Part shown: positions 11,528 through 41,484 of the stretch, in pieces
Layout: each line of letters starts with the position of its first letter
How positions within the stretch are numbered: the first letter of the stretch is position 1
Origin: Pseudomonadota bacterium
GTDB taxonomy: Bacteria; Pseudomonadota; Gammaproteobacteria; Xanthomonadales; Xanthomonadaceae
Length of the DNA stretch: 56,503 nt
Reading direction: 5' to 3'
Assembly: GCA_020161335.1 (NCBI GenBank)
Contig: JAIUOJ010000007.1
Span: forward strand, 1 to 56,503
Translations under genes and position numbers: made by a program
The notes under the pieces: model-generated
What the model saw: the letters and a program-made list of their open reading frames with translations, nothing else
Told to the model about the DNA's origin: nothing
The model's database searches: none

Positions 11528-11564
11528 GCGCGGTTTCGGTCATTGCATCGGGCTGCGGGACGCT

Positions 11565-12008: not shown

Positions 12009-12017
12009 CGACGCCTC

Positions 12018-12048: not shown

Positions 12049-12110
12049 GTGGGGCCTACGGGTGCTATGCCCTGCAACAACGAAGTCGCCATGCCAGGGA
12101 ATACAGCCGC

Positions 12111-12141: not shown

Positions 12142-12200
12142 GTGCAATTGCAACTGGTTCCCATTCCCGTTTTCGACTCTCTCCCATCCAGGCGCTTCCC

Positions 12201-14153: not shown

Positions 14154-14262
14154 GGCACGGCATGTGGCCTGCGCGCGGCAGCAGGGACGGCGCTCGGCGC
14201 GACGCCTTCCAGATGCGATCGATCCCGCAGACCCTACAGGCCTGCATGGAGGAACCCACGCG

Positions 14263-16653: not shown

Positions 16654-16762
16654 CGTGGATACCGTCGCGCATGTGTCCACGAGCGAGGAACGGCATGACC
16701 CGCTCCCGGGAACCGGCCTGATGAGATTTTATAACGTCCGTGGCACCGGCTAGGCTGGCAGG

Positions 16763-17149: not shown

Positions 17150-17213
17150 GTCAGGTGTTTTGCCCCTTTGGCGCGGAGCGCCAGAGGACACCGTCGACTC
17201 AGAGGATCTTCCA

Positions 17214-19651: not shown

Positions 19652-19691
19652 TGATCTCTGACGCCAATCCCGCCTTTGCGGGAGGTGCGCC

Positions 19692-23137: not shown

Positions 23138-23210
23138 TGGCCGAAGCGGTGCCGTGACTGGGTGCGGCGGGCCCGGCCTGTCGCGTCCTTCAACATCGGG
23201 AGTGCCCACC

Positions 23211-23531
23211 ATGAAGATGATTGTCGCCTTTGTCCGTCCATCGCTGGCTGATCGCATCGTGCGGGTAATCGAGCGTGCGGGCCTCTACCACCTCTCGCTG
23301 TCCCGGGTGCACGGCGTCGTGCATCCGAACGAAGCCATCGTCCGTGCCGATCTGGCGCCAGAGGGTGAATCCGACGTGCGGTTGGAAGCCTATTGCGAAG
23401 ATGCGCGGACCGAACAGATTGTGGCCCTGATCCATGAGGTAGGCCGCATCGGCGACCTGCCGGTAGGGGCCGTGTTCGTCGTGCCGGTGGAGCGGCACGA
23501 GGCAATCGGCCCGTCGAGCCCAGCCGAATGA
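23211..23531 (+). CDS. PII-like protein (PII-NG type), second copy
   Basis: A 106-residue paralogue of the preceding protein with the same fold pattern: MKMIVAFVRPSLADRIVRVIERAGL, LEAYCEDARTEQIVALIHEVG and GRIGDLPVGAVFVVPVE, the last resembling a PII B-loop. The sequences share the Cys-Glu-Asp segment but are otherwise diverged, so this is not a recent duplication. The ATG at 23211 begins the fold directly. It lies 73 bases after the first copy and 22 before the exchanger gene. A heteromeric trimer of the two proteins is conceivable but unproven. Confidence 0.8.
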   Translation: MKMIVAFVRPSLADRIVRVIERAGLYHLSLSRVHGVVHPNEAIVRADLAPEGESDVRLEAYCEDARTEQIVALIHEVGRIGDLPVGAVFVVPVERHEAIGPSSPAE

Positions 23532-23553
23532 CTCATCGAAGGAGAAGCCGCGC

Positions 23554-24801: not shown

Positions 24802-24839
24802 CGCGTTCGAACCATCGATTCGATTACGGGAGACTTCTT

Positions 24840-25733
24840 ATGGGCGCAGGACACGATCACGGCACCGGCGAGATAAAGCACGAACAGCCATTGTGGTGGG
24901 CCTTTGGCTTAACTACCGCGTTCCTGATTGCGGAGGTCATCGGTGGATTGATTACCAATAGCCTGGCATTGCTGTCCGATGCCGCTCACATGGGCACAGA
25001 TGTCATTGCGCTGGCAATCTCGTTGTTCGCTGTGCGTTTGAGCCGACGACCACCCGACGCCAAGCGCACGTATGGCTATGCGCGGATGGAAGCCATAGGC
25101 GCGATGATCAATGGTGGCCTGCTGTTCCTGGTCGCCGGCTACATCCTGTGGGAGGCCGTCGGCCGCTTTCGCGATCCGCCGGAAGTCGCCTCGAGCGGCA
25201 TGCTGGTGATCGCTGCGATTGGCCTGGTCATCAATCTGATCTCGATGCGCCTACTCAAGGCGGGCAGCGGCACCAGCCTCAACGTCAAGGGCGCCTATCT
25301 GGAAGTCTGGAGCGACATGCTGGGTTCCGTCGGTGTCATCGTCGGCGCGTTGGTGATCAAGTTCACCGGATGGACGGTGGCCGACCCCATCATCGCAGTC
25401 CTCATCGGACTTTGGGTGCTGCCGCGTACGTGGACATTGTTGCGGGAAGCTGGTCAGGTGCTGATGCAAGGCGTGCCGCATGGCCTGGAGTTGGACGAGG
25501 TCCGCACCATGATGCTGTCGCACCCCAACGTCATCGCGGTTCATGACCTGCATGCCTGGGCCTTGGGCTCCAAGGAGCCGGTGCTGACGGCGCATATCGT
25601 GTTGCGCGATGGGGGCGATGGAGAACAAGTCCGGCGCTCACTGGCCGCTGCACTGGAGGAGCGGTTCAGCATTCACCACGCGACGCTGCAAGTCGAAATG
25701 ACGCCATGTGACGATGCACATGGTCATGCCTAA
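24840..25733 (+). CDS. czcD: CzcD, cation diffusion facilitator (Zn/Co/Cd)
   Basis: A 297-residue CDF transporter exporting Zn2+/Co2+/Cd2+ from cytoplasm to periplasm by proton antiport. It has a short His-containing N-terminus (GAGHDHGTG), six membrane helices with the transport site in TM2 (SDAAHMGTD) and TM5 (EVWSDMLGSVG), and a cytosolic C-terminal domain (HDLHAWALGSKEPVLTAHIVL) that dimerises and binds metal. It ends czc transcription; its stop overlaps the convergent merR end by four bases, and no terminator is seen between them. Confidence 0.94.
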   Translation: MGAGHDHGTGEIKHEQPLWWAFGLTTAFLIAEVIGGLITNSLALLSDAAHMGTDVIALAISLFAVRLSRRPPDAKRTYGYARMEAIGAMINGGLLFLVAGYILWEAVGRFRDPPEVASSGMLVIAAIGLVINLISMRLLKAGSGTSLNVKGAYLEVWSDMLGSVGVIVGALVIKFTGWTVADPIIAVLIGLWVLPRTWTLLREAGQVLMQGVPHGLELDEVRTMMLSHPNVIAVHDLHAWALGSKEPVLTAHIVLRDGGDGEQVRRSLAAALEERFSIHHATLQVEMTPCDDAHGHA

Positions 25734-26176
25734 TCGGCTATCGCGGCGCATCGACCGCGCTTGTCCGAGTGCTCCGTCGCATGCTCTAGACGGTCCAGGG
25801 TCGGACACGACTCGCCGCCAGGCGCCTGACTGCATTCAGCGATGAGGTTCATAAGATCGACTTCCAGCCGATGTAACGCATCGAGTCGTTCGCGAACATC
25901 GACCAGTTTGAGTTCGGTCAGTCGACGCGTTTGCTCACAGGCCCGCTTGCCCTTGAGTTCCAGCAGGCCGGCAATTTCATCCAGGGTAAATCCCATCGCT
26001 TGGGCTCGCCGGATGAATTGAAGACGGGTGACATCGGCTGGTCCGTAGTGGCGGAAGCCGCCCAAGGGCCGTTGGGGTTCCGGCAACAGCCGGCGGCGCT
26101 GGTAGTAGCGCACGGTTTCGACATGCACGCCGGCCGATGCCGCCAGTTTGCTGATGGTGAGGGCGCTCTCGGCCAT
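25730..26176 (-). CDS. merR: MerR, mercury-responsive regulator
   Basis: A 148-residue true MerR. The Hg(II)-binding cysteines are Cys80 (KRACEQT), Cys115 and Cys124 (ECSQAPGGESCP), with the same spacing (35 and 9) as Cys82/117/126 of Tn501 MerR. The HTH reads ISKLAASAGVHVETVRYYQRRRLL. It diverges from merT across a 41-base gap carrying the mer operator, as in classical mer operons. A short Cys-containing tail (DKRGRCAAIAD) extends beyond the usual end. Confidence 0.93.
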   Translation of the reverse strand: MAESALTISKLAASAGVHVETVRYYQRRRLLPEPQRPLGGFRHYGPADVTRLQFIRRAQAMGFTLDEIAGLLELKGKRACEQTRRLTELKLVDVRERLDALHRLEVDLMNLIAECSQAPGGESCPTLDRLEHATEHSDKRGRCAAIAD

Positions 26177-26179
26177 GGC

Positions 26180-26211
26180 TTGACTCCGTACCCAGGTACA
26201 GACCGTAGTAT
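26180..26211 (+). promoter_or_regulatory. mer promoter/operator
   Basis: TTGACT (26180-26185) and TAGTAT (26206-26211) are separated by 20 bp, the over-long spacing of MerR-controlled promoters. The spacer contains GTAC-CCAG-GTAC (26188-26199) as operator core, resembling the Tn501/Tn21 mer operator half sites. Transcription should start at about 26217-26219, on or next to the merT ATG (26218). Confidence 0.8.
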
Positions 26212-26217
26212 GCGCTC

Positions 26218-26574
26218 ATGGCCAACCTCCCCGCCAAATCCTCCCTGCCAGCCATCGTTGCGGCGAGTTTTGCCGCCATCGCGGCGTCCGTGTGCTGTGT
26301 GGTGCCGCTGGTTCTGGTGCTGCTGGGCGTCAGCGGCGCGTGGATTGCCAACCTCACCGCGCTGGATGCCTGGCGACCTTGGTTCAGCGTGGCCACGTTG
26401 GCGTGCCTTGGCTGGGCATTTTGGAGTCTGTACGGTCCTGCCTCCCGCTGTCGAACGGACGGAGCTTGCATTGATCCAGGCGGGCTGCGCCGCCGCCGGC
26501 GTTGGCTCTGGATGGCAACCGTCGTGATCGCGCTGCTGCTGCTCTTCCCGTATTACGTAGCTTGGTTCATGTAG
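26218..26574 (+). CDS. merT: MerT, inner-membrane mercuric ion transporter
   Basis: A 118-residue protein with three hydrophobic helices. The first carries the vicinal Cys26-Cys27 pair (ASVCCVVPLVLVLLGVSGAWI) that accepts Hg(II) from MerP; Cys77 and Cys83 sit in the cytosolic loop (RCRTDGACID), as in MerT. There is no ribosome-binding site before the ATG, which lies at the predicted transcription start, so the mRNA may be leaderless. MerT moves Hg(II) into the cytoplasm, where MerA normally reduces it, but no merA is present. Confidence 0.93.
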   Translation: MANLPAKSSLPAIVAASFAAIAASVCCVVPLVLVLLGVSGAWIANLTALDAWRPWFSVATLACLGWAFWSLYGPASRCRTDGACIDPGGLRRRRRWLWMATVVIALLLLFPYYVAWFM

Positions 26575-26584
26575 GAGACGAACG

Positions 26585-26869
26585 ATGCGCCAGTGGATTG
26601 TTGGGTTGATGATCTTGTGGACGGGCATGGCGTGGGCCGCGACGCCGAAGAAGGCCGTCCTCGATGTTGAAAACATGACCTGCCCGGCGTGCAGCATCAC
26701 GATCGAAAAGGCCCTGGACAAGGTGCCCGGCGTTTCCAAGGCACAAGTCGACACCAAGGCGGCTACTGTCACCGTGGACTTCGATGCCGATCGCACCAAC
26801 GTGCCAGCTATCGCGCGTGCGATCTCCGAGGCAGGCTTCCCGGCCAAGGCGAGGGCCAACGGTGGCTGA
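26585..26869 (+). CDS. merP: MerP, periplasmic mercury-binding protein
   Basis: A 94-residue protein with a signal peptide (ending AWAA, residue 19) and one HMA domain whose metal motif is MTCPACS, Cys33 and Cys36. It binds Hg(II) in the periplasm and passes it to MerT. A GAGACG-type site precedes the ATG, 10 bases after merT. The last codons overlap the GTG start of the following gene. Confidence 0.95.
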   Translation: MRQWIVGLMILWTGMAWAATPKKAVLDVENMTCPACSITIEKALDKVPGVSKAQVDTKAATVTVDFDADRTNVPAIARAISEAGFPAKARANGG

Positions 26870-27074
26870 GTTGCAGTTGCAGAGCACGCTGACGTGTCCG
26901 CAATGCGGTCACCAGGCCGTCGAGACCATGCCGACGACGGCGTGCCAGTTCTTCTACGAGTGCACGGCCTGTGGCGAGCTGCTGAAGCCCGAACCGGGCG
27001 ACTGCTGTGTTTTCTGCTCCTACGGCACGGTGCCGTGTCCGCCCATCCAGCAGCAAAGGCCGTGCTGTGGGTAG
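26862..27074 (+). CDS. GDCCVxC-domain protein (Cys form of a Sec-containing family)
   Basis: A 70-residue cytoplasmic protein starting at GTG inside merP (8-base overlap). Almost a sixth of it is Cys: TCPQCGH, ACQFFYECTACGE, then GDCCVFCSYG at residues 47-56, and VPCPPIQQQRPCCG at the end. The GDCCVxCSYG motif defines a family often encoded after merT/merP, some members of which carry selenocysteine within the motif; this copy has Cys. The function is not established. Thiol handling of Hg(II) delivered by MerT is a reasonable inference. Confidence 0.83.
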   Translation: MAELQLQSTLTCPQCGHQAVETMPTTACQFFYECTACGELLKPEPGDCCVFCSYGTVPCPPIQQQRPCCG

Positions 27075-27167
27075 TCGGTTGGCCACCGGATGTTGGGAAC
27101 TCGCCGCGCTAAACCGCGTCTATGGACTATTCGGCTTGCTCGCCGCCAGAGGAGTACCATCCCGCCC

Positions 27168-27554
27168 ATGACCCGGCGCGCCCGCCACCGCCTACAGATC
27201 GCCGTCCTGGTGATCGTCTGCCTGCTGTTCCAGCAGGCGGCGCTGGCGGCGTATCTGTGCCCGATGGAGCAGATGTCCGCCCAGACCATGGCGATGGCGG
27301 AGCCTTGCGCCGAGATGGGCATGGCCCAGCAGCACGACAAGGACAATCCGCTTCTTTGTCAGAAGCACTGTAATCCTGATCACACAGTTACTACCGACAC
27401 CGCCAAGCTATCGGTGCCACCGCTTGCGTTGCCGGCGCTCATCCTGGCGCCGGTCTACGTGCAACCTGTATCCCACGTCACCATCCAGGCTGACGTGCCG
27501 ATCGCCCGATCCGATCCGCCCCCACGGCTGCGTTTCTGCAGTCTTCTGATCTAG
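27168..27554 (+). CDS. Small secreted or membrane protein upstream of cusCBA, unknown function
   Basis: A 128-residue protein with an N-terminal hydrophobic segment (LQIAVLVIVCLLFQQAALAA) that could be a signal peptide. A short Met/Cys/His stretch (CPMEQMSAQTMAMAEPCAEMGMAQQH and LCQKHCNPDH) looks suited to bind soft metals, and a hydrophobic Pro/Val-rich part follows. Similar small Cys/Met proteins occur before copper RND operons, but I cannot name the family. The 93-base gap before it shows no convincing promoter. Confidence 0.65.
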   Translation: MTRRARHRLQIAVLVIVCLLFQQAALAAYLCPMEQMSAQTMAMAEPCAEMGMAQQHDKDNPLLCQKHCNPDHTVTTDTAKLSVPPLALPALILAPVYVQPVSHVTIQADVPIARSDPPPRLRFCSLLI

Positions 27555-27629
27555 CCCCCGAAACGACGTAGCGAATCCGCGCCGGCGCCGATGCGCCGTG
27601 CGCGCGGCCATGTCCGTTTCGGAGGCGTC

Positions 27630-28922
27630 ATGAACTCCCGTTTTGATCGTTGTCGGTCCTGGGCCGCACTTAAGTGTGCGTTGGTCCGGACCTTGTGCGT
27701 GGCCGTGCTGGCGACGCCATTTGCGGCTTTGGCCGCATCCCATAAGCTCACGCTGCCGGAAGCCATCCGTCTGGCCAGCGAGCGTGCGCCGATGCTCGAT
27801 GCCCGCCGCTCCGGTGTGTTGGCCGCGCAAGAAGAAGCAGCCCGCGCCGGCGCCTTGCCTGATCCAATGCTGATGGTCGGCATCGACAACCTGCCAGTCA
27901 CCGGAAGCGATGCCTTCGATACGCGCGCCGACGACATGACCATGAAGAAGATCGGGCTGCGGCAAGAGATTCCCTCGCGGGCCAAGCGTTCAGCGCGTCA
28001 GTCCTTCGCCGCGCGCCAGATCGACGAAGCGCAGGCGCAAGCAGACGCCGAAGTGCTGGCCGTGCGCCGCGCCACGGCCGAAGCCTGGATCGCCGTGTGG
28101 GCCGCGCAGCGCCAATTGACGGCGCTGCAGAAGCTGCGTGAGCAAGCCGCGCTGGCGGCGAAGGTGTCGAAGGCACGCGTGGCGAGCGGTGGCGAACCGG
28201 TGAGCGACGCACTCGCCACCGAGGCCGCACTGCTGGAACTCGACAACCGCATCGAGGCCGCCCGTGCCGAGAAGCTGGCGGCACAAGCCGGGCTGGCGCG
28301 CTGGCTGGGCGACGCGCCGGTCGAGGTTGCCGATCAAGCCCCGAACTTTGACTCGCTGCCTGTATCCGAAGCCCGATTGCTGGCAGAGGTGAATCGGGTA
28401 GGGCCGTTGCTTCCCGCCACCGCTCAGCTCGAAACCGCCGCAGCTGCGATCGATGTCGCCCGCGCCGACAAGCATCCGGACTGGAGCGTGGGTGCGTCCT
28501 ATGGCCAGCGTGCCGGTGGTCGCAGCGACATGATCATGTTCGAAGTGGGCATCGGCTTGCCGCTGTTCTCGCGTAACCGGCAGGATCGTGGCATCGCAGC
28601 CCGGGAAGCGGACTATCAGGCCGCGTTGGCGACCCGCGAAGACCTGCGTCGCCAGGAAGCGGCGCGCATTCGCGCGGATCTCGCTCGATGGGAAGGGCTG
28701 AAGCGCCAGGTCGCCCTGCATGAGCACTCCCTGTTGCCGCTCGCGCAGGACCGCAGTGCGACGACGCTCGCCGCGTATCGCGCCGGCGGCGAACTGCAGC
28801 CGTGGCTCAACGCCAGACGTGACGAACTCGATGTGCACCTCGCGCACGCCGAACACCTGGGTGAACTCGGACGTGCCTGGGCCGCGCTGGCCTTCCTGTT
28901 GCCCTCGGAGATGCAGCCATGA
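27630..28922 (+). CDS. cusC: CusC-like outer-membrane channel of the Cu/Ag RND system
   Basis: A 430-residue TolC-family outer-membrane factor. A GGAG site precedes the ATG at 27630, and a signal peptide ends FAALAA. OEP repeats start with LTLPEAIRLASERAPMLDARRSGVLAAQEEA and, in the second half, DWSVGASYGQRAGGRSDMIMFEVGIGLPLFSRN. Long Ala/Arg-rich helices form the tunnel. It belongs to the operon with cusB (ATGA overlap) and cusA. No sensor-regulator pair of CusRS/CopRS type is next to it. Confidence 0.9.
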   Translation: MNSRFDRCRSWAALKCALVRTLCVAVLATPFAALAASHKLTLPEAIRLASERAPMLDARRSGVLAAQEEAARAGALPDPMLMVGIDNLPVTGSDAFDTRADDMTMKKIGLRQEIPSRAKRSARQSFAARQIDEAQAQADAEVLAVRRATAEAWIAVWAAQRQLTALQKLREQAALAAKVSKARVASGGEPVSDALATEAALLELDNRIEAARAEKLAAQAGLARWLGDAPVEVADQAPNFDSLPVSEARLLAEVNRVGPLLPATAQLETAAAAIDVARADKHPDWSVGASYGQRAGGRSDMIMFEVGIGLPLFSRNRQDRGIAAREADYQAALATREDLRRQEAARIRADLARWEGLKRQVALHEHSLLPLAQDRSATTLAAYRAGGELQPWLNARRDELDVHLAHAEHLGELGRAWAALAFLLPSEMQP

Positions 28923-30466
28923 ATACCACTCGTCGCAGCGTGGTCACTGCTGCTGTTTCCCTTGCGCTGGTGGCCGCCGTCGGCCTCGGTTACTGGTGGG
29001 GGCGCACTCACGGGAGTTCATCCGCCGCCGACACCTCGAGCCCGCAGTCCGCCGAACGCAAGGCGCTCTATTGGTACGACCCGATGGTGCCCGACCAACA
29101 CTTCGACAAGCCTGGCAAGTCGCCCTTCATGGACATGCAACTGGTGCCGAAGTACGCCGACGAGGCGACGGCCGGCGGCGTTGCCGTTGCACCGGGCGTG
29201 CGCCAGAACCTCGGCATCCGCACGGTGGTGGTCAAGCCTGGCCGACTGACGGCAGCCGTCCGCGTGCCGGGCACCATTGGCTGGGACCTGCGTCAGGAAC
29301 GCATCGTCAGTGCGCGAGTCGACGCCATCGTCGAGCGCTTGCACGTGCGTGCCCCGTTTGAGCCGGTGCGCGCGGGGCAACCCCTGGCCAGCATCATCGC
29401 GCCAAGTTGGAACACTGCGATTGCCGAAGCGCGAGCGTTAGGTGGAGCTCGCTCCGCCGCCGCACGAGGTTTGCAATCCGCCGCCCACGAACGGTTGCGT
29501 GCGTTGGGTCTGCCCGCGGGCAGTGGTGCGGGGCAGCGCGGACGACTCACCTTGACCTCACCCGTGACCGGCGTCGTCAGCGAAATCGGCGTGCGCGAAG
29601 GGCAGTCGGCGCCGATAGGCACGCTGCTGTTCCGCGTCAACGGTACCCGGACGGTCTGGCTCGAAGCGTCGATTCCGCAAGCGGGCACTGCGGGCATCGC
29701 GACGGGTACGTTGGTGGAAGCGGCTGTCGACGCATTGCCAGGCGAGGCCTTCCACGGCCGCGTGGAAACCTTGCTGCCGCAAGTGGACATGAGTAGCCGC
29801 ACCCAACGGGCCCGCATCGTTCTGGACAACCCGGACGGTCTCCTGGCACCGGGCATGTTCGCGCAGATCACCTTGCAGCCAACTGCGAGTATCGAACGGC
29901 CGCTGGTACCGACGGACGCGTTGATCGGAGCGGGTGCGCAGGCTCGCGTGATCGTGCTCGGCGCCGACGACATGTTCCATCCCGTGCGCGTGCAGACCGG
30001 TCGCAGTGGTGACGGCATGACTGAAATTCTCGCGGGGCTGAAAGGTGGCGAGAAGGTGGTGGCCTCGGGGCAGTTCCTGATCGATTCCGAAGCGAACCTG
30101 TCAGGCGCACTCGAACGCCTCAATGCCGGTGCGGGTGATGAAGAAGCGAACATGCCGAGCGATGTCATGCCCGGTATGCCAGACATGGCGATGCCGCCGC
30201 AGGCTGCGCCCGCGCGCCCGGCGCCACCCGTAGTACCGCCCAAGAAGAAGGCGCCCCCAGCCGTTGCAACACCAGCGGTCACCGCGTCACCCAAGGCACG
30301 GCAATGCCCAGTGACCTATTGGTATGACCCGATGGTGCCGGACAAGCACTTCGACAAACCCGGCAAGTCGCCCTACATGGACATGCAGTTGGTGCCCAAG
30401 TTCGCGCCCGAGGCGAACCCGGATTGCACCATTCGTGATGTGCCTGCGGCGGGACGGCAGCCATGA
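28919..30466 (+). CDS. cusB: CusB-like periplasmic adaptor with heavy-metal-binding domains at both ends
   Basis: A 515-residue membrane-fusion protein. An N-terminal membrane anchor (residues 9-25) is followed by a heavy-metal-binding domain at about 51-80 ([19 protein letters not shown], then [10 protein letters not shown]). The lipoyl, hairpin and barrel domains of CusB follow ([31 protein letters not shown]). After a Met-rich and Pro-rich linker ([17 protein letters not shown]), a second copy of the metal domain stands at about 467-496, differing at only three of 30 positions. CusB normally has one such element at most. The ATG overlaps the cusC stop. Confidence 0.92.
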
Positions 30467-33400
30467 TCGCCCGCATCATTCGCGCCTCTATCGCTAACCG
30501 GCTATTTGTGCTGGTGGCTGCCATTGCGCTGGCAGCGGCCGGCATCTGGTCGGTATTGCACACGCCGCTCGATGCCTTGCCCGACCTGTCGGATACGCAG
30601 GTCATCATCCGCACCGAATGGCCCGGGCAGACGCCGCGCATCGTCGAAGACCAGGTCACCTATCCCTTGACCACAACGATGCTGTCGGTGCCGGGCGTCA
30701 AGGCGGTGCGTGGCTTCTCGTTCTTCGGCGACTCGTTCGTCTACGTGCTGTTCGACGACAAGACCGACTTGTACTGGGCACGCTCGCGCGTGCTCGAGTA
30801 TCTGAGCCAGGTACGTGATCGCTTGCCGGCGCAGGTCAGTCCGGCGATCGGGCCGGATGCCACGGGTCTTGGCTGGATCTATGAGTACGCGCTCGTCGAT
30901 CGCACCGGCAAGCACGACCTGGGGCAGCTGCGCGCCTTACAGGACTGGTTTCTGCGCTACGACCTCAAGACCGTGCCCGACGTGGCCGAAGTCGCAAGCG
31001 TCGGCGGCATGGTCCAAGCCTGGCAAATCGTGCCAAATCCGCAGGCGCTGGCGGCGCGCGGCCTCACCATCAACCAACTCGTCGAAGCCATTCAGTCCGC
31101 CAACGGCGCCACTGGCGGCTCGGTGATCGAGCAGGGCGAAGCCGAGTTCATGGTACGCAGCGAAGGCTATCTGCGTACGCGCGCCGATTTCGAGCGCGTC
31201 CCTGTGACGACCGGCAACGACGGCGTGCCGGTGCTACTGCAGGATGTGGCGATGGTGCAACGCGGACCGGCCTTGCGCCGCGGCATCACCGAACTCGATG
31301 GCGAAGGCGAAGTCGCCGGCGGCGTGATCATTCTGCGTTCGGGCAAGAACGCTTTGGCCGCGATCGAAGCCGTCAAGGCCAAGCTGCAGGACCTGAAGGG
31401 AAGCCTGCCGGCCGGTGTCGAAATCGTGCCGACCTATGACCGCTCCGAATTGATCCTCGAAGCCGTGCGCAACCTCACTCGCAAGCTCGGCGAGGAATTC
31501 CTTGTCGTCGCCCTGGTGTGTGCGCTGTTCCTGTGGCACGTACGCTCCTCCTTGGTGGCGGTGATCACCTTGCCCTTGGGCGTGCTCGCGGCCTTCATCG
31601 TCATGCACATGCAGGGCATCACCGCGAACCTGCTATCGCTCGGTGGCATCGCGATCGCGATTGGCGCGATGGTCGATGCCGCGGTGGTGATGATCGAGAA
31701 CGCGCACAAGCACCTCGAGCATTTCCGCGACGAGCACCACCGTGAACCCGAGGGCGCCGAGCGCTGGGAGCTGATGGCGGTTTCCGCCAGCGAGGTCGGT
31801 CCGGCGCTGTTCGTCAGTCTGCTGGTGATCACGCTGTCGTTCGTGCCGGTGTTCGCCTTGCAGGCGCAGGAAGGACGGTTGTTCTCACCGCTGGCCTACA
31901 CCAAGACTTATGCCATGGCCGCTGCGGCGGGCCTGTCCATCACCCTGATTCCGGTACTGATGGGCTACCTGATCCGCGGCCATATCCGATCCGAGAAAGA
32001 CAACCCGCTCAATCGCATCCTGATCGCGCTGTATCGGCCGGTGCTGGATGCAGTGCTGCGTTTCCCGAAACTGACATTGGCGCTGGCCGGTGTCGTGCTG
32101 CTGGTTAGCCTGATTCCGCTCTTACGTCTTGGCAGTGAGTTCATGCCGCCCCTGGAGGAAGGCACGCTGCTATACATGCCATCGGCATTGCCCGGCTTGT
32201 CTGCTGGCAAGGCATCGCAGTTGCTGCAACAGACTGACCGCATGCTCAAGACCGTGCCCGAAGTGGACCACGTGTTTGGCAAGGCGGGCCGGGCTGAGAC
32301 CGCCACCGACCCGGCACCGCTGGAGATGTTCGAGACGACGATCACCTTCAAGCCGCGCAGCCAATGGCGGCCGGGGATGACACCCGAGAAGCTGCGCGAG
32401 GAACTTGACCGCGCAGTCAAGGTGCCGGGGCTGACGAACCTGTTCGTGCCGCCCATCCGCAACCGCATCGACATGCTGGCCACCGGCATCAAGAGCCCGA
32501 TCGGCATCAAGGTCTCGGGGCCCGACGTTGCGGTGCTGGCGCAGTTGAGCGATCGCATCGAACGGGTTGCACGCACCGTGCCCGGCGTGAGTTCGGCGCT
32601 GGCCGAACGCATCGCGGGTGGTCGCTACATCGACGTGAAGGTGCGGCCCGATATGGCCGCCCGGTACGGCTTAAGCCAGGCCGATGTGCAGCGGTTGATT
32701 GCGACGGTGGTGGGTGGAGAACCGGTCGCGGAGACCATCCAGGGCCGCGAACGCTACCCGGTGGTGGTGCGCTATCCACGCACGATCCGCGACTCGCCGG
32801 CCGCACTCGCGCAGTTGCCTTTGCTCGCGCCAAGTGGTGTGCAGCTGACGTTGGGACAGGTCGCCGAGCTGAGCTTCAGCGAAGGCCCGCCGATGTTGCG
32901 CAGCGATAACGCTCGCCTCAGCAATTATGTTTACGTGGATGTGGCTGGACGCGATCTCGGCTCGGTGGTGACCGATCTGCAACGTGCGGTCGCAAAGCAG
33001 GTGCCGATGCCAGCCGGATACGCCGTGGGTTGGTCCGGCCAGTACGAGTACCTCAAACGTGCCAGTGAGCGGCTGCGCGTGGTGGTTCCCGCGACGTTGG
33101 TAATCATCTTCGGCCTGATTTACTTGGTGTTTCGACGCGTGTCGGAGGCCGCGATCATCATGCTCAGCCTGCCACTCGCATTGGTCGGGGGCTTGTGGCT
33201 GATCTGGGGCATGGGCCATGCCGTATCGGTCGCCACGCTGATCGGCTTCATCGCCCTGGCCGGCGTCGCCGCCGAGTTCGGCATCATCATGTTGCTGTAC
33301 CTGCGCCACGCGTGGGAACGCCAACTCGCCGCGAATCCGAGCGCGGGCGAGGCGGAACTCGACGACGCGATCCGCGAAGGCGCCGTGCAACGCGTGCGAC

Positions 33401-33639
33401 CAAAGGCGATGACCGTAGCCGTGATCCTGGCCGGTCTGTTCCCGATCCTGATCGGAAGCGGCGCCGGCTCGGAAGTCATGCAGCGCATTGCTGCGCCGAT
33501 GGTCGGCGGCATGCTCAGTGCGCCGTTGCTCTCGATGCTCGTGATTCCGGCCGCGTACCGGTTGCTGCAGCGGCGTCGCTTGCGGCGATCACGCCAATCA
33601 CGTCCCAGCTCACTTTCTTCGTCGGCGTTGCCGACATGA
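30463..33639 (+). CDS. cusA: CusA, Cu(I)/Ag(I) RND efflux pump
   Basis: A 1058-residue HME-RND inner-membrane pump, beginning [18 protein letters not shown]. The TM4 motif [19 protein letters not shown] is that of monovalent-metal pumps, with Asp405 at the same number as in E. coli CusA. Met561 ([16 protein letters not shown]) and Met residues in the periplasmic cleft are candidates for the Cu(I)-binding Met cluster. The start overlaps the cusB stop (ATGA). It exports Cu(I)/Ag(I) from periplasm or cytoplasm through CusBC. Confidence 0.95.
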
Positions 33640-33706
33640 CCGGCCACGGCGAGCGCCCCGTTTGGTGCCCGGCGTGCCACTCCCTCTGACTTATCAGGAG
33701 GTTCCC

Positions 33707-34072
33707 ATGAAACTGCATCTAACATCGCTCGCCATCAGCCTGCTGCTCCCGATCGCTGCTGCGGCCGCGCCGCGTGAGCGAGCCCCAGTCGGCTCGGTCC
33801 ACCAGATCGCCGATCATCAGCTCCAGGTGTGCTTCAAGCACACGCCGGCACCGGATGTCGGCACGTCGCTGGCGATCCAGCGCGGCTTCGTCCCCTACAA
33901 GAGCAGCGGTGCCACGCTATACAAAACCATCGGCCACGCACGCGTCACCGTCACCGAGGACTCGTGTGTGACCGCTGAACTGGTGGATGGCGCCGCGAAG
34001 CGCTACGACCGCGTCATCACCACGGATAGGACCGCTGCTACACAAGAGGGCGACCGCAATTGCCCTTGCTGA
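33707..34072 (+). CDS. Small periplasmic protein after cusA, unknown function
   Basis: A 121-residue protein with a strong AGGAGG ribosome-binding site and a signal peptide (residues 1-20, ending AAAAA). The mature part has four Cys: QVCFKHTP, EDSCVTAEL and the terminal NCPC. I do not recognise the family. It lies 67 bases after cusA and directly before a strong terminator, so it is probably the last gene of the cus operon. Confidence 0.65.
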   Translation: MKLHLTSLAISLLLPIAAAAAPRERAPVGSVHQIADHQLQVCFKHTPAPDVGTSLAIQRGFVPYKSSGATLYKTIGHARVTVTEDSCVTAELVDGAAKRYDRVITTDRTAATQEGDRNCPC

Positions 34073-34080
34073 CGAAGTAT

Positions 34081-34122
34081 GACCACCTGGGCACTGGCAG
34101 CTGCGTAGGTGGTCCCTTTTTT
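34081..34122 (+). terminator. Rho-independent terminator of the cus operon
   Basis: GACCACCT (34081-34088) pairs with AGGTGGTC (34107-34114), and a run of six T (34117-34122) follows. This is a textbook intrinsic terminator and separates the cusF-like gene from the cus operon. Confidence 0.88.
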
Positions 34123-34151
34123 GCACTCATCATCTAGCCCAAGGAGAACCC

Positions 34152-34553
34152 ATGAAAATGCCCACCCTCGTACTCACCCTTGCACTGCTGACCGCCTGCT
34201 CGTCGCCTTCGGGGGATGCGAATGCCCCCGCGTCGACGAATCATGCGGAAATGCCTGCAGAATCGAAAGCATCCACGGCGGCATCAGCTTCCAACGAATC
34301 GATGCCCATGCCGGAAATGGCATCGGCGGCTACCATGGCGTCGGCCAGCGGCACGGTCGAGGCGGTCGACACCGCTGCGAAGACGATCACGATCGCTCAT
34401 GGACCAATCGATGCTCTGAAGTGGCCGGCGATGACCATGACCTTCAAGGCGCCCGAGGTGGACCTGACCGCCCTGAAGCAGGGCGATCAGGTTAACTTCG
34501 AGCTCACCTCGACCGGTATGGATGGCACCATCACCAAAATAGTGCGCAAGTAG
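34152..34553 (+). CDS. cusF: CusF-domain copper chaperone, lipoprotein
   Basis: A 133-residue protein with an AAGGAG ribosome-binding site. A lipobox ends at Cys16 (LLTACSS), then a Met/Ala/Ser-rich linker (MPMPEMASAATMASA). The CusF OB-fold contains SGTVEAVDTAAKTITIAHGPI and LKWPAMTMTFKAPEVDL. His83, Trp91, Met94 and Met96 reproduce the spacing of the E. coli CusF Cu(I)/Ag(I) site (His36, Trp44, Met47, Met49). It would deliver periplasmic copper to CusB. Unlike E. coli cusF, it lies after cusA and behind a terminator, so it needs its own promoter. Confidence 0.92.
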   Translation: MKMPTLVLTLALLTACSSPSGDANAPASTNHAEMPAESKASTAASASNESMPMPEMASAATMASASGTVEAVDTAAKTITIAHGPIDALKWPAMTMTFKAPEVDLTALKQGDQVNFELTSTGMDGTITKIVRK

Positions 34554-34634
34554 TGCGCGTCGGGAAAGGGGCGCGCACGGTCGCGCCCGAGGCGTGGGCT
34601 TGCTTCCAGGCATGGGCGCGGAGGCATACAATCC

Positions 34635-34663
34635 GGTTAGACTAAGTATTCCTTAGTCTAACC
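34635..34663. promoter_or_regulatory. Perfect 12-bp inverted repeat, probable operator
   Basis: GGTTAGACTAAG (34635-34646), loop TATTC, and CTTAGTCTAACC (34652-34663) form a perfect palindrome ending 17 bases before the GTG of the SseB-like gene. A TACAAT hexamer (34627-34632) immediately upstream could be a -10 box, which would put the palindrome over the transcription start, as for a repressor site. The half-site TTAGACTAA loosely recalls DtxR/MntR-type boxes. No T-run follows, so a terminator is less likely. Confidence 0.55.
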
Positions 34664-34680
34664 GAGCCCAACGAACACGC

Positions 34681-35439
34681 GTGATTCCTGCAGACGAACT
34701 CGCCAGGCTGATGCATGAGGCACTCGCCGACAAGTCGGCGGAACCGGCCTTTTTCCGTGCGCTGCTGGATGCAACGGTCTACGCTCACACGCCACGCAGT
34801 GGTCGTCGTGGTGAACGTCTGCGCTTCATCCAGTTCACAACGCCCGAAGGTCTGACCGTGTTGCCATTCTTCACCGAAGAATCGCAGGCCAGAACAGCGG
34901 CCGGGTCTGCAGCGACTGTCTTGGTGCTAACCGGACGTCAACTATTCGAATGGACACGGGGTGCGACACTGATGCTCAACCCAAACGAGGTAGGTTGTAC
35001 GCTGTATCCCGAAGAAATCGCTGCGCTGCTCGATCATGGAGAGGTGGCCATCGTCGAGCGGATCGACACGGGCGGTCAGCAGCTTTGGATAGGGGCTTCC
35101 AGCGATTGGCCTACTTGGTTAGTCGACCGGTTGATTGCGCTCTACGCGGGTCTGGATTGTGTCGAGGCGGCTTATCTGGCTGGCATCGGTGCGCCCTATG
35201 GCTCCGAACAGCGAGGACTGTTGGTTGCCGTCTCTGTGCCAGCGAAAGATGCCGAGCGTGTCGCCCGTGCCACTACGACGGAATTGCAGCCGCACTGCCG
35301 AGCGCTTCGAACCACCGTCGACCTGACTGCTTTTGAGCCTGGTGATCTCCCGGGTTGGTTAAAGGATGCCAGCCTCGAACCGTTCTATGTGCGCGCCATG
35401 GGCGAGCGGATAGGTCTTGGTCCGCAGGGGCTGCAGTAA
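34681..35439 (+). CDS. SseB-like protein
   Basis: A 252-residue protein whose N-terminal half matches the SseB family: LRFIQFTTPEGLTVLPFFTEESQA, LVLTGRQLFEWTRGATLMLNPNE and YPEEIAALLDHGEV. The C-terminal half resembles the SseB C-terminal domain (ELQPHCRALRTTVDLTAFE). SseB was named for altered serine sensitivity, but its biochemical function is unknown. GTG at 34681 is the first start after the palindrome; a weak ribosome-binding site makes ATG 34711 an alternative. The stop is followed without gap by the next ATG, so the two genes form a unit. The role within a metal island is unclear. Confidence 0.68.
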   Translation: MIPADELARLMHEALADKSAEPAFFRALLDATVYAHTPRSGRRGERLRFIQFTTPEGLTVLPFFTEESQARTAAGSAATVLVLTGRQLFEWTRGATLMLNPNEVGCTLYPEEIAALLDHGEVAIVERIDTGGQQLWIGASSDWPTWLVDRLIALYAGLDCVEAAYLAGIGAPYGSEQRGLLVAVSVPAKDAERVARATTTELQPHCRALRTTVDLTAFEPGDLPGWLKDASLEPFYVRAMGERIGLGPQGLQ

Positions 35440-35931
35440 ATGACCTCGCTACGCGAAGGTGAAGTTCTCGCCGAACAGGTTGCCTCGGAATTCGTACATG
35501 CGTTGTTTCCGAGTTTCCGAACACCGGCGTTTTTGGCTTGCCCAGACGATTTGTGCGCCAAAGCAGTGCTCGCTGCAGTTACGCGTGCGGCAGGTGCAAG
35601 AGGAGTTGCGACGGAGATCATTGATCTGCGTCCTGCGCCTGCCGAACTCCTTGGCAGGGTAACCGAGCGGCTATGTGGCTTTGAGGGTAGGCGGAAGCGG
35701 AAGGATGCGCCTGCGATCAGCGTGCTTGCGCTAGATGGGTTCGATCTTCTGGAAGGAGTGGACAATGACAGGCCGACCTATCCATTCCGTTCGGAGTTTC
35801 AATTCGACGAAGATTTCCGCTGGCTCTTCCTAGGGCGCGACTGGGGCCGGCTTCGGCGGCTATTCGGGACCTATCGTCTGCCGCTGTATCACGCAGCGTC
35901 TGATCTCACACCTGAGCCTTGGCGAACGTAA
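35440..35931 (+). CDS. Unknown protein paired with the SseB-like gene
   Basis: A 163-residue soluble protein that I do not recognise. It begins at the base after the SseB-like stop (TAAATG). Visible features are a helix rich in small residues followed by a strand (AVLAAVTRAAGARGVATEIIDLRP), a hydrophobic strand ending in acidic residues (ISVLALDGFDLLEGVDN, which resembles a Walker-B strand) and a C-terminal FRWLFLGRDWGRLRRLFGTYRLPLYHAASDL. No P-loop is seen. It could be a degenerate nucleotide-binding fold, but this is weak. No signal or membrane segment is present. Confidence 0.55.
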   Translation: MTSLREGEVLAEQVASEFVHALFPSFRTPAFLACPDDLCAKAVLAAVTRAAGARGVATEIIDLRPAPAELLGRVTERLCGFEGRRKRKDAPAISVLALDGFDLLEGVDNDRPTYPFRSEFQFDEDFRWLFLGRDWGRLRRLFGTYRLPLYHAASDLTPEPWRT

Positions 35932-36253
35932 TCAGGGCAGCAACTATGGCAGCTAGTATCAAGTAACTAATTGATATTAAAGGCATATCCTTGGGTTTAT
36001 TGCTCCTTTCAGGCGGATATCGGCAGCCCCTCGGGGGCTGCGCCGAAGTCTGTTTTGTGTCCGCTTCCGACGGAGTCACACGGCTGGTAGGGTTGGTGCA
36101 AGTTGTTAGCTAGCATCTCCTCGCACGATGGACCCTGGCCAAAAGTGCACAACCCAAGGAATATCTGAAGTGTTCGGCTCTGTTTCGAATCCACAGGCGA
36201 GGTTGCCTAAATTTCGACAGCTACCGAAAAAGTGTCCAGACGGGCGCCGCGCC
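35932..36253. other. Gene-free, AT-richer right edge of the metal island
   Basis: About 320 bases without a recognisable gene and visibly less GC-rich than both flanks. It contains a hairpin, GCAGCCCC-TCG-GGGGCTGC (36023-36041), followed by GTTTTG, a possible terminator for the SseB-like gene pair. No tRNA, integrase, IS end or direct repeat that I can identify is present. It joins recJ coding sequence at about 36,250, which makes it the island boundary. Confidence 0.6.
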
Positions 36254-37297
36254 CTAGCGGATCTGGTGCCGCTGGATGCGAACAACCGCGCGCTGGTGGC
36301 GGCGGGCCTGCGCCGGCTGCGTGCCGGGAAGGGTTGCGCCGGGCTGCAGGCGCTGATCGAGGTGTCCGGGCGCAAGGCGCCGCTGCTTTCCGCCAGCGAC
36401 ATCGGCTTCGCGATCGCGCCGCGGATCAACGCGGCCGGCCGGCTGGAGGACATGGCGCTGGGCATCGAATGCCTGCTGACCGACGACACGGCGCGTGCGC
36501 GCGAACTGGCCGACCTGCTGCACGGCATCAACGCCGAGCGGCGCGGCGTGCAGCAGGCCATGGTCGACGATGCCGACGCCGCGCTCGCCGTGCTGCCGGC
36601 GCAAGCCGATGGCGCGTCGCCGGTGGCGGTGTGCCTGTGCCATCCCGACTGGCATCCGGGCGTGGTCGGACTGGTGGCGTCGAAGGTGAAGGAACGCCTG
36701 CACCGCCCGGTCGTCGCGTTCGCGCCCGCCGAACCGGGCAGCGACCTGCTGCGCGGCTCGGCGCGCTCGATTCCCGGCCTGCACATCCGCGACGCGCTGG
36801 CCGCCGTCGACAGCGCCCATCCCGGCCTGGTCGAACGCTTCGGCGGCCATGCGATGGCGGCGGGCCTCACGCTCGCCGCCACGCGGTTCGACGCGTTCGA
36901 TGCCGCATTCCGCGCCGTGGTCGAGGCGATGGTCGATCCCGCCGTGCTGCAGGCGGAACTGCGCAGCGACGGCGAACTGCAGGCGCACGAATTCGACCGC
37001 GTGCACGCCGATGCGCTCCGCGACGGTGGGCCGTGGGGGCAGGGGTTCCCGGAACCGCTGTTCGACGGCGTGTTCGAGGTGCTCGATTGGAAGATCGTCG
37101 GTGAACGCCATCTCAAGCTGTCGCTGCGCCGAGACGGCGTGCGTGGTGCACTCAACGCGATCCACTTCGGCGGCTGGACCGGGGCCGCGCCGCCCGCGCG
37201 TTGCCGCATGGCCTACCGGCTGGCGGGCGACGACTGGCGCGGCCCGCGGGCCATCCAGCTCGTCATCGAACACCTGGAGCCGGCGGCGGGCGATTGA
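36254..37297 (+). pseudogene. recJ: recJ, 3' fragment (single-strand-specific exonuclease), 5' end lost
   Basis: From LADLVPLDANNRALVAAGLRRLR onward the frame is ordinary RecJ, including IGFAIAPRINAAGRLEDM, the DHHA1-domain GGHAMAAG motif and the C-terminal OB part (LKLSLRRDGV, AIHFGGW). About 348 residues remain of the usual 560-570. All DHH catalytic motifs of the N-terminal third are missing. Upstream, the frame continues into unrelated island sequence to an ATG at 36128 (about 40 foreign residues), so a chimeric product is possible but would lack nuclease motifs. Loss by island insertion is the likely cause. Confidence 0.85.
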
Positions 37298-37376: not shown

Positions 37377-38505
37377 ATGATCGAACTCAATCCCGTGCGC
37401 CAGCGCATCGCCGACCTGACCGGTCGGCTGGATGCGCTGAGGGGGTATCTTTGACTACGACGCCAAGCGCGAGCGCCTGGAAGAAGTAGAACGCGAACTG
37501 GAACATCCGGACGTCTGGAACGATCCGGAACGCGCGCAGGCCCTGGGCCGCGAACGCTCGTTGCTGGACAAGACCGTCAACGGCATCCGCAGCCTCACCG
37601 ACGGCCTGGTCGGGGCCTCCGAACTGCTCGAACTGGCCGAGGCCGAGGATGACGAAGCCACCGCGCAGGCGGTGGTCGACGACGTCGAGCGCTACGCCGG
37701 CGAGGTGGACAAGCTGGAGTTCCAGCGCATGTTCTCCGGCAAGATGGACGCCACCAATGCCTTCGTCGACATCCAGGCCGGCGCCGGCGGCACCGAGGCG
37801 CAGGACTGGGCCGAAATGCTGCTGCGCATGTACCTGCGCTGGGCCGAGTCGCGCGGCTGGAAGACCGAGCTGATGGAAGCCAGCGGCGGCGAAGTGGCGG
37901 GGATCAAGTCGGCCACCGTGCGCATCGAGGGCGATTTCGCCTACGGCTGGCTGAAGACCGAGACCGGCGTGCATCGCCTCGTGCGCAAGTCGCCGTTCGA
38001 CTCGGACAACCGCCGCCACACCAGCTTCACCTCGGTGTTCGTGTCGCCGGAAGTCGACGACAACATCGACATCGAGATCAACCCCGCCGACCTCAAGACC
38101 GACGTGTACCGTTCGTCCGGCGCGGGCGGCCAGCACGTCAACAAGACCGAGTCGGCGGTGCGCATCACCCACGTCCCCACCGGGATAGTTGTAGCCTGCC
38201 AGACCGGGCGCAGCCAGCACCAGAACCGCGACACCGCGATGAAGATGCTGGCGGCGAAGCTGTACGAGCTGGAAATCCAGAAGCGCAATGCCGAGCGCGA
38301 TGCGGTGGAAGCCACCAAGTCCGACATCGGCTGGGGCAGCCAGATCCGCAACTACGTGCTCGACCAGAGCCGCATCAAGGACCTGCGCACCGGCATCGAG
38401 CGCAGCGACACGCAGAAGGTGCTGGATGGCGATCTCGACGAATTCGTCGAGGCGAGCCTGAAATCCGGACTTGAGGCCGGTTCCAAGCGCGTCGACGCCG
38501 TCTAG
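37377..38505 (+). CDS. prfB: Peptide chain release factor 2, with programmed +1 frameshift
   Basis: RF2 ends translation at UGA and UAA. The first frame runs from ATG 37377 for 25 codons to an in-frame TGA (37452-37454). Shifting by +1 at CTT-T continues with GACTACGACAKR-type sequence ([24 protein letters not shown]) to 38505, about 375 residues in all, the normal length. The tripeptide anticodon SPF (RKSPFDSDN) and catalytic GGQ ([15 protein letters not shown]) are present. It follows recJ by 79 bases, where a TAGAAT hexamer (37331-37336) might provide an independent promoter. Confidence 0.96.
37440..37455 (+). promoter_or_regulatory. prfB programmed +1 frameshift site
   Basis: AGGGGGTATCTTTGAC: a Shine-Dalgarno-like AGGGGG three bases before the slippery CTT codon, followed by TGA C. 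RF2 shortage makes the ribosome slip by +1 and read GAC. This is the conserved autoregulatory signal of bacterial prfB, with the in-frame stop at codon 26. Confidence 0.97.
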
Positions 38506-38560
38506 CCATCGATCATCCCGATCCGGCGAAGCCGCGGAGGGATCCGGTGGCGGCGGGAAC

Positions 38561-38621
38561 ATCCCTCGCTGCGCTCGGGATGACAAAACGTTTAGGCTTT
38601 CCCGATTCCCGATTCCCGATT
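38561..38621. repeat. Dispersed hairpin repeat and CCCGATT tandem repeat in the prfB-lysS gap
   Basis: ATCCC (38561-38565) and GGGAT (38577-38581) flank TCGCTGCGCTC, continuing into GGGATGAC. The same GGGATGAC end occurs at 43778-43784 and 53919-53926. It is followed by three tandem CCCGATT units (38601-38621). Such elements are common between genes of this family and may act as weak terminators or simple repeats. Confidence 0.6.
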
Positions 38622-38637
38622 CCCCACAGGCCATGCA

Positions 38638-40155
<1,518 letters not shown>

Positions 40156-40178
40156 GCCTGCCGGCGGGCCGACGGCGC

Positions 40179-40211
40179 GGAGCGCCCGGGCCAGGCGGAA
40201 CTGGGCGCTCC
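40179..40211 (+). terminator. Inverted repeat after lysS, probable terminator
   Basis: GGAGCGCCC (40179-40187) pairs with GGGCGCTCC (40203-40211), a 9-bp GC stem with a 15-base loop and no strong T-run. In the rest of the 270-base gap to rpfG there is a short palindrome GGTCAC-TTC-GTGACC (40260-40274), possibly a protein-binding site in the rpfG promoter region. Confidence 0.5.
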
Positions 40212-40425
40212 GGGGCTTCACGCCTGCGTCACTCCCGTCCGCGTTTTAGGGCATCATTCGGTCACTTCGTGACCTGCGGAAGGGCGGATTGGCGTTGATT
40301 CGGGGATCACGGTCTCATTTTCTGGCAGGACCGGCATGGGCACAGGAATTGCTACGTATCCCCCATCTGGCGACGATCCTGCCCGGCAAGGCGGGTCGCC
40401 ACGCCAACCGGGAAGCCCTGACCAG

Positions 40426-41484
40426 ATGAATATCGTCATCGTCGACGACCAGACCTCCGCCCGCACCATGCTGCGGCACATCCTCGAGGACATCAGTCCC
40501 GAGCTGGAGGTGCTCGACTTCGGTGACCCGCAGGTGGCCTTGCGCTGGTGCGAGGAGAACCGCCCGGACCTGCTGCTGCTCGACTACCGCATGCCGGTGA
40601 TCGACGGGCTGGAGTTCGCCCGTCGCTTCCGCAAGCCGTTGCTGCACCGCGACGTGCCGATCGTGCTGGTGACCGTGGTCGGCGACGAGCCGATCCGCCA
40701 GGCCGCGCTCGACGCTGGTGTCATCGATTTCCTGGTCAAGCCGGTCCGGCCGCGCGAACTCCGCGCCCGCTGCCGCAACCTGCTGCAGCTGCGCCAGCAG
40801 TCCGAATCGATCAAGCAGCGCGCGCTGTCGCTGGAGCAGCGCCTGCTGTCGAGCATGCACGAGGTCGAGGAGCGCGAGCGCGAGACCCTCAGCCGCCTGG
40901 CGCTGGCAATCGAGTTCCGTGATGCTGGCACCAGTGCCAATCTCGCCCGCCTCGCCGCGGTGGCCGGCCTGGTCGCCGAGGAAATGGGGATGTTCGAGGA
41001 CGAGGTGCGGATGATCGAACTCGCCGCGCCCCTGCACGACATCGGCAAGATCGCGATCCCCGACGCCCTGCTGCTCAAGCCCGGCCCGCTGGACGCCGGC
41101 GAGATCGAGCTGATGCGCACGCATCCGCGCATCGGCCACGAACTGCTGAACGGCAGCCAGAACCGCTTCATCCAGCTCAGCGCCACCATCGCGCTGCGCC
41201 ACCAGGAGCGTTACGACGGCAGTGGCTATACCGATGGCCTGGTCGGCGACCAGATCCCGGTCGAGGCGCGCATCGTCGCCGTGGCCGACGTGTTCGACGC
41301 GCTGATCTCGCGGCGTCCCTACAAGCGGGCCTGGAGCATCGACGAAGCGCTGGCCTACATCGCCGACCAGTCCGGCAAGCTGTTCGACCCTGCCTGCGTC
41401 GCTGCGCTGCTGCGCGGGCGCGAGCGGGTGGAGGACATCTGCCGCCGGTTCCCGGCGCCCGTGGACGGTCGCGGCGATGGCTGA
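40426..41484 (+). CDS. rpfG: RpfG, HD-GYP response regulator (cyclic di-GMP phosphodiesterase) of DSF signalling
   Basis: A 352-residue two-domain protein. The receiver domain has Asp53 (LLLLDYRMPVIDG) as phosphoacceptor and Lys in LVKPVRP. The HD-GYP phosphodiesterase domain has HD at 204-205 (LHDIGKIAIPD), TGxHP-equivalent THPRIGHELL, and RHQERYDGSGYTDGL at about 258-272. The consensus is HHExxDGxGYP, so two positions differ (Gln260 for the second His, Thr269 for Pro). It receives phosphate from RpfC and degrades cyclic di-GMP. ATG 40426 begins the receiver directly; an upstream in-frame ATG at 40336 adds an unrelated Pro/Gly-rich stretch. It overlaps rpfC by eight bases. Confidence 0.93.
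   Translation: MNIVIVDDQTSARTMLRHILEDISPELEVLDFGDPQVALRWCEENRPDLLLLDYRMPVIDGLEFARRFRKPLLHRDVPIVLVTVVGDEPIRQAALDAGVIDFLVKPVRPRELRARCRNLLQLRQQSESIKQRALSLEQRLLSSMHEVEERERETLSRLALAIEFRDAGTSANLARLAAVAGLVAEEMGMFEDEVRMIELAAPLHDIGKIAIPDALLLKPGPLDAGEIELMRTHPRIGHELLNGSQNRFIQLSATIALRHQERYDGSGYTDGLVGDQIPVEARIVAVADVFDALISRRPYKRAWSIDEALAYIADQSGKLFDPACVAALLRGRERVEDICRRFPAPVDGRGDG

What the first reader, a model, noticed from the sequence alone, without database searches (positions are those of the whole stretch)
35932..37297. Metal island fused into recJ, leaving only the catalytically dead 3' part
RecJ homology begins abruptly at LADLVPLDANNR (about 36,250). Upstream is AT-richer, gene-free DNA and then 36 kb of metal-resistance modules. 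The DHH motifs are absent. In Xanthomonadaceae recJ stands directly before prfB-lysS-rpfG, so the island has broken the rpf-linked recJ. The strain would lack RecJ nuclease unless another copy exists. This would be an insertion target not usually listed for metal islands.
Basis: partly seen in the sequence, partly recalled or inferred. Interest (0 to 1): 0.7.

Follow-up and report, generated by a model that had tools for sequence, protein, structure and literature searches.

The report
Metal island inside recJ carries recJ
A metal-resistance island has cut the DNA-repair gene recJ in this bacterium; almost identical complete islands in other bacteria cut recJ at the same codon and carry their own recJ beside their integration genes, as if bringing a spare for the gene they break.

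Summary
The window has the 3' part of recJ (DHHA1 and OB domains) joined at 36,257 to the end of a metal island. The join is real: the island differs by only 1-2 bases in 36 kb from islands in three other genomes, while the recJ beside it is 74-75% identical. The 5' part of recJ lies on another contig of the same assembly; about 216 bp of recJ and the left ~14 kb of the island are not assembled. In complete copies (~50.4 kb, two genomes) that left part is a GInt-type operon, ginABCD, followed by a full-length diverged recJ with its DHH motifs. So this is a GInt-type island that integrates in catalytic motif IV of recJ, and the strain probably has the island's RecJ rather than none. All four islands with a readable left end carry that RecJ; 15 genomes with other GInts have one RecJ each. 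A second, unrelated recombinase trio cuts recJ at another codon and carries a RecJ of the same clade; relatives of that trio cut a radical-SAM gene and in two of three carry a spare of it. Replacement of the broken gene is the best-supported reading, untested by experiment; related RecJs also occur on plasmids.

The parts
1..35931 (.). Cargo of the island, cut at the left by the contig end: multicopper oxidase and CopB (1-2878), heavy-metal P-type ATPases (5657-8185, 14164-16653), FTR1/cytochrome c gene (12123-14153), NAD synthase (9881-11527, minus), two CusA/CzcA efflux systems (17160-22820, 27591-33639), CusF (34152-34553), SseB-like (34681-35439), unknown ORF (35440-35931).
   Evidence: Pfam and NCBIfam scans; 1-36248 identical but for 1-2 bases in G254, G265, G128. 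The ORFs at 28919-30466 and 27591-28922 were not scanned.
35932..36256 (.). AT-rich non-coding right end of the island (the short AT-rich 3' end described for GInts).
   Evidence: GC 0.522 for 35932-36247; 300 of 300 bases identical in three other genomes up to 36256.
36224..36239 (-). Terminal motif CTGGACACTTTTTCGG (read on the minus strand); the left end of complete islands has CTGGACACTTTC in the opposite orientation.
36257..36262 (+). Junction core GCGGAT, where identity with the other islands ends and host recJ begins (codons A-D of GTVAD-LVPL).
36257..37297 (+). 3' fragment of the host recJ (DHHA1 and OB domains), open to its stop; the frame 36128-37297 runs from the island end into it.
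37378..41484 (+). Right host flank: prfB (frameshift-type sequence at about 37441), lysS (38638-40155), response regulator with HD-GYP, rpfG-like (40336-41484).
   Evidence: names recalled. prfB and lysS are aligned in the same place in G265.

Best explanation
The window holds the right 36 kb of a ~50.4 kb GInt-type island (genomic island with three integrases) that has integrated site-specifically in host recJ, at the codons GTVAD-LVPL, catalytic motif IV of the DHH nuclease. GinABCD recombine a short core (GCNGA) of the circular island with the same core in recJ, cutting the gene into a 5' part (contig C233) and a 3' part (this window). The left end of the island, not assembled here, carries ginABCD followed at once by a full-length, diverged RecJ, which most likely takes over the work of the broken host enzyme, so that the element can use a conserved catalytic codon as target without leaving the host without RecJ. 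Shown: identity of the island, its junctions and target codon, the operon in complete copies, the open frame and motifs of the carried RecJ. Inferred: that this genome has the same left end, that GinABCD catalyse the insertion, and that the carried RecJ is made and replaces the host enzyme.
For: Same island and same junction codon in four genomes with different hosts. Left end with four gin-like genes and RecJ in G037, G254, G265, G355; in G037 all five ORFs overlap by 4-26 bases. Carried RecJ has DHH, DHHA1 and OB domains and the metal-site motifs in the alignment to 8y30 (motif names recalled). RecJ goes with the target: of 18 family genomes with a GinC-like match, 3 are recJ islands with RecJ, the other 15 have a single recJ match each. 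A second recombinase trio, not matched by the G037 gin proteins, cuts recJ at profile 266/267 in G346 and G673 and carries a RecJ of the same clade. Relatives of that trio that cut a radical-SAM gene carry a full copy of it in 2 of 3.
Against: The left end was not found in this assembly. No activity was tested, and the carried RecJs score below the TIGR00644 cut-off (333-355 against 396.9 bits). RecJs at under 60% identity lie on 35 plasmid records and in G385, whose host recJ is whole, so mobile elements carry RecJ for other reasons too. An island in Bacillus gerE with serine recombinases also has a recJ homologue. One of the three radical-SAM elements, G618, has no spare. G254 and G265 hold one and the same element and G346 and G673 are close, so the independent cases are few.
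Confidence: 0.68

Rival explanations
1. The carried RecJ is a helper of the element itself (single-strand processing in recombination, replication or repair of the circular form); its presence in elements that cut recJ is by descent or chance, not replacement.
For: RecJ follows ginD directly and overlaps it in G037. Related RecJs occur on plasmids and in the Bacillus gerE element, whose authors suggest a role in maintenance or mobilization (PMC5595907, passages).
Against: GInts at other targets do without it: none in the 8 loci read and only one RecJ in each of 15 genomes. Two unrelated recombinase sets share it and both cut recJ. No RecJ in five relatives of the second trio at other targets.
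Confidence: 0.27
2. The strain is simply without RecJ: a one-off or decaying insertion that left a dead fragment.
For: No whole RecJ in this assembly and no left island end; G128 and G296 also show only the 3' piece.
Against: The assembly is in 252 contigs and the island is all but identical to copies that carry RecJ. The same codon is cut in at least seven genomes.
Confidence: 0.1
3. Assembly or binning artefact: a foreign island contig wrongly joined to recJ.
For: Fragmented assembly; the left side of the island is missing.
Against: The same element end sits at the same recJ codon in other assemblies, each with its own host recJ, and the left junction in G254 and G265 switches just as sharply.
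Confidence: 0.02

Closest known systems
[quoted passage not shown] 2017, PMC5385486; called Tn6571 family in PMC10121019)
   Same: Three tyrosine-recombinase-like genes and a small fourth gene at one end, large variable cargo, short AT-rich other end, strict target, short imperfect core at the junctions. Relatives found with GinC lie right after ssb, a site reported for GInts.
   Different: Target is the middle of a gene, in its catalytic motif, whereas the paper says that insertion probably does not fully inactivate target genes; and a fifth gene, recJ, follows ginD. The passages I read name no recJ.
SE, strand-biased circularizing integrative element (PMC10214605, passages)
   Same: The second trio (429, 634, 722 aa) resembles intA-tfp-intB in order and size; SEs are reported to have inverted terminal motifs and a 6-bp footprint.
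   Different: No SE protein was compared here, so this is a likeness only; the recJ target and carried RecJ are not in the passages I read.
gin element in gerE of Bacillus cereus (PMC5595907, passages)
   Same: Island that cuts a gene, three recombinases, carries a recJ homologue.
   Different: Serine recombinases; the cut gene is gerE, not recJ.
Tn554 and RIT elements (PMC3414803, passages)
   Same: Two or three adjacent tyrosine recombinases; Tn554 has a unique site, and a RIT insertion in a radC gene is reported.
   Different: Not compared by sequence here; no carried copy of the target is mentioned in the passages I read.

Membership tests
GInt | ginABCD operon: three tyrosine-recombinase-like proteins and a small fourth protein | tested here: inconclusive
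   Met by order, size and Pfam Phage_integrase (A above, B and C below cut-off) in the complete copies; not in this assembly; published Gin proteins were not aligned.
GInt | Cargo of 2.5 to 70 kb and short AT-rich 3' end | tested here: met
   About 50.4 kb in all; end with GC 0.522.
GInt | Strict target and short imperfect direct repeats at the ends | tested here: met
   Same recJ codon in G000, G037, G128, G254, G265, G296, G355; repeats of about 5 bases (GCNGA), shorter than the 10-17 reported.
GInt | Excision as a circle | not testable with these tools
   Needs PCR or reads.
RecJ (carried protein) | DHH, DHHA1 and OB domains and metal-site motifs | tested here: met
   but below the NCBIfam cut-off for TIGR00644.
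RecJ (window piece) | DHH domain with motifs I-III | tested here: not met
   Only DHHA1 and OB found.

The most novel reading that the evidence does not exclude
Several unrelated recombinase-trio elements follow one strategy: they integrate in the invariant catalytic codons of a conserved gene and carry a diverged full-length copy of that same gene, so that the host is not harmed. It is seen for recJ with two unrelated recombinase sets at two codons, and for a PA0069-family radical-SAM gene in two of three elements read to both ends.
Probability: 0.5. Interest if true: 0.78.

Novelty: new variant of a known kind. Interest (0 to 1): 0.62.

Why it matters
Site-specific elements are expected to avoid harm by using gene ends or tRNA genes. 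Here a large metal-resistance island, all but identical in several hosts, uses the catalytic core of a DNA-repair gene and appears to pay with its own enzyme. If true, this explains how such elements can use very conserved targets open in many hosts, predicts that cargo should be searched for copies of target genes, and means that a gene annotated as broken may be replaced from within the insert. The host's repair nuclease would then be exchanged together with metal resistance.

Tried and rejected
Misassembly: rejected. A second copy of the AT-rich end in this genome: only chance-level matches of up to 27 bases. Overlap of the C233 end with other contigs: only short weak matches. The left 14 kb of the island in this genome: four matches at 68-74% only. 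The island on plasmids: only cargo modules, 73-76% in the 8 rows listed, and 0 of 643 records cover most of the query. G007, whose contig ends at the same recJ base as C233: the island's right end was not found, only two 66% matches in the efflux genes. A piece of the radical-SAM gene inside the G623 element looked like a spare but is a 71-aa remnant; a full copy was then found further right.

Papers: searches. PMC5385486: parts 1-3 of 6 and passages. Passages only of PMC3414803, PMC5595907, PMC10214605 and PMC10121019. All others: search listings only.

Full report
Claim. A metal island fused to recJ at about 36,250, leaving only the 3' part of the gene.

Check. The window is the whole contig C7 of a 252-contig assembly (G000, 3.56 Mb). 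recJ is there in two pieces: C7:36254-37273 (profile positions 211-545) and C233:1-411, minus strand (positions 4-143, cut by the contig end). The window piece has DHHA1 and OB domains only. C233 has the gene order of the left flank of G254, greA - unknown gene - recJ, so it is most likely the left side of the same locus. By G254 numbering about 216 bp of recJ are missing between C233 and the expected left junction.

The junction is real. A pattern for the element end plus the recJ codons, run over genome contigs, gave 4 loci: two Lysobacterales MAGs (L033, L035), a Proteobacteria MAG (L034) and Pseudoxanthomonas sacheonensis DSM 19373 (L036). Contig lengths identify them with G128, G296, G037 and G254. 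The pattern undercounts: G265 and G355 have the junction with small differences. In 395 genomes of the family recJ has a match in 383 and passes the cut-off in 367; the list of places was cut, the table of genomes was not. I looked closer at 20 of these and earlier handles with odd recJ, plus three of the four pattern loci, which proved to be genomes already held. The 3' piece starts at position 211 in G000, G128, G254, G265, G296 and G355; in G037 the match starts at 204 with the same junction codon. The matching 5' piece ends at 214-215 in G037, G254, G265 and G355 and was not found in G128 and G296.

The island. Positions 1-36248 differ from G254 by 2 bases, from G265 by 2 and from G128 by 1, without gaps, while the recJ part to the right is 74%, 75% and 75% identical. 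The switch lies at CGCGCCCTA|GC. G254 and G265 hold the whole island; over 50,422 aligned bases they differ at 4. At their left junction the element blocks are 50 of 50 identical and the host blocks 23-42 of 50 (ungapped). G355 has a diverged relative with much of the same cargo (86-91% over the longer stretches, 73-76% in two shorter ones). The window starts at island position 14,175 and the G128 contig at 7,694. Both ends bear CTGGACACTTT in inverted orientation, 17 bases from the core GCNGA in the window and in G254.

The missing left end. In G254, G265, G355 and G037 the left end has tyrosine recombinases A, B and C, a small protein D, then a RecJ of about 590-600 aa, 57-58% identical to that of G037. 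In G355 gene A is split between the ends of two contigs. In G254 RecJ starts 5,650 bases from the junction. Pfam sees Phage_integrase in A (1.9e-9) and below cut-off in B (9e-5) and C (0.0027) (G037 proteins). This is the plan of GInts: ginABCD, cargo, AT-rich 3' end, strict target (PMC5385486). I did not align the published Gin proteins; the filing rests on order, size, domains and the ssb site of the distant relatives.

Target. The cut lies in GTVAD-LVPL, motif IV of the DHH nuclease core (motif names recalled). The 5' piece keeps motifs I-III, the 3' piece DHHA1 and OB; neither can be a working RecJ (inference). All 3' pieces at this codon are open frames without stops, which fits recent insertion.

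Does the carried RecJ go with the target? With GinC as query, 18 of 395 family genomes match at 1e-10 or better; 13 of these are partial matches of 28-35% identity. Three are recJ islands (G254, G265, G355); the other 15 each have a single recJ match. I read 8 of the 15: six lie right after ssb, two after a TSCPD-domain gene downstream of a ribonucleotide reductase gene; none has RecJ in the stretch read. Seven were not read. Conversely, a second near-complete RecJ was found in 5 of 395 family genomes, G254, G265, G346, G355 and G385, and four of these five have a split host recJ. In 398 genomes of the order, 9 match the carried RecJ at 1e-90 or better; only G254, G265, G037 and G673 do so at 57% identity or more (G346 and G355 are not listed among its matches).

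A second system. G346 and G673 (one contig, 4.2 Mb) have another recombinase trio (429, 634, 722 aa; 88-93% identical between the two; no match from the G037 gin proteins at 1e-5), inserted in recJ at profile 266/267, and a RecJ 57-63% identical to the GInt ones. Pfam sees an integrase only in the first of the three. On a tree of 24 rows the five island RecJs form one clade (100/99) apart from 17 host RecJs (100/100); G037 branches outside (G254, G355) plus (G346, G673), so the RecJ clade does not follow the recombinase type. Dropped by my motif filter before the tree: RecJ of G635 and G612 and 3 of 20 host loci; the tree warns of long branches, G673b and G385 among them. Five relatives of the second trio (26-32%) in 348 order genomes have no RecJ in the 12.7-20 kb first read, nor in 40 kb for the four that were extended. 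A Fisher test on 6 of 6 recJ elements against 0 of 13 others gives 3.7e-5; the rows are not independent (G254 and G265 hold one element, G346 and G673 are close), so it is only a guide.

An unexpected extension. In four of those five relatives the 5' part of a radical-SAM gene, cut at the same motif, lies upstream of the recombinases (in G617 about 3 kb upstream); the fifth, G572, is cut by its contig end. The gene is the PA0069 family of NCBIfam, by the copy in G623. Of the three with both pieces in the 40 kb read, G623 carries a complete 373-aa copy (87% identical to the 3' piece, 75% to the 5' piece), G037 contig 15 a complete 376-aa copy in the opposite orientation (58% and 56%), and G618 none. 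G617's right end was not reached.

Against. RecJ of this kind is not limited to recJ-cutting elements: 35 plasmid records hold one at 1e-60 or better, all under 60% identity, 22 of them Xanthomonas, and 25 of 355 genomes of a class-wide sample have a RecJ 36-44% identical, perhaps often their only one (not checked). The carried RecJs fall below the curated RecJ cut-off. The Bacillus gerE island with serine recombinases carries a recJ homologue. So a helper role is possible. In this genome the left end was not found, and G128 and G296 show no second RecJ either.

Verdict. My odds: GInt-type island inserted in recJ about 0.95; replacement as the role of the carried RecJ about 0.65. No paper on recJ as an island target, or on carried target copies in GInts, came up in the searches.

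Noticed in passing
L002:1 (end of contig C233) and L029:2900 (end of G007 contig C454): Two different species of one genus have contigs that end at exactly the same recJ base, after ACCGACCAC in the DHH motif. The island's right end was not found in G007. Unexplained; it may be chance.
   Followed up: partly
window 1-36248: The island differs by only 1-2 bases in 36 kb from those in three other genomes whose recJ is about 75% identical, so it moved between these hosts very recently.
   Followed up: yes
window 9881-11527 (-): An NAD synthase gene (NCBIfam PRK13981, above cut-off) lies among the metal genes of the island; another copy of a housekeeping gene in the cargo.
   Followed up: no
L123 with L118 (G623), L124 with L117 (G037 contig 15), L126 with L116 (G618): Elements with a second type of recombinase trio cut a PA0069-family radical-SAM gene; two of the three carry a full spare copy of it.
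   Followed up: partly
L027 and L028 (G037 contig 3): The recJ island of G037 has no metal genes that I recognised but looks rich in defence genes (type I restriction, nucleotidyltransferase-like and ThiF-like proteins); judged by eye, not scanned.
   Followed up: no
G036 and G025 (same order, family f2): G036 has only one RecJ match, and it is nearer the mobile type (41% to the island RecJ); G025 of the same genus has none.
   Followed up: no
window 36128-37297: An open frame starts in the island end and runs in frame into the recJ remnant (389 aa); the same reading frame is open in G254. Whether it is expressed is unknown.
   Followed up: no
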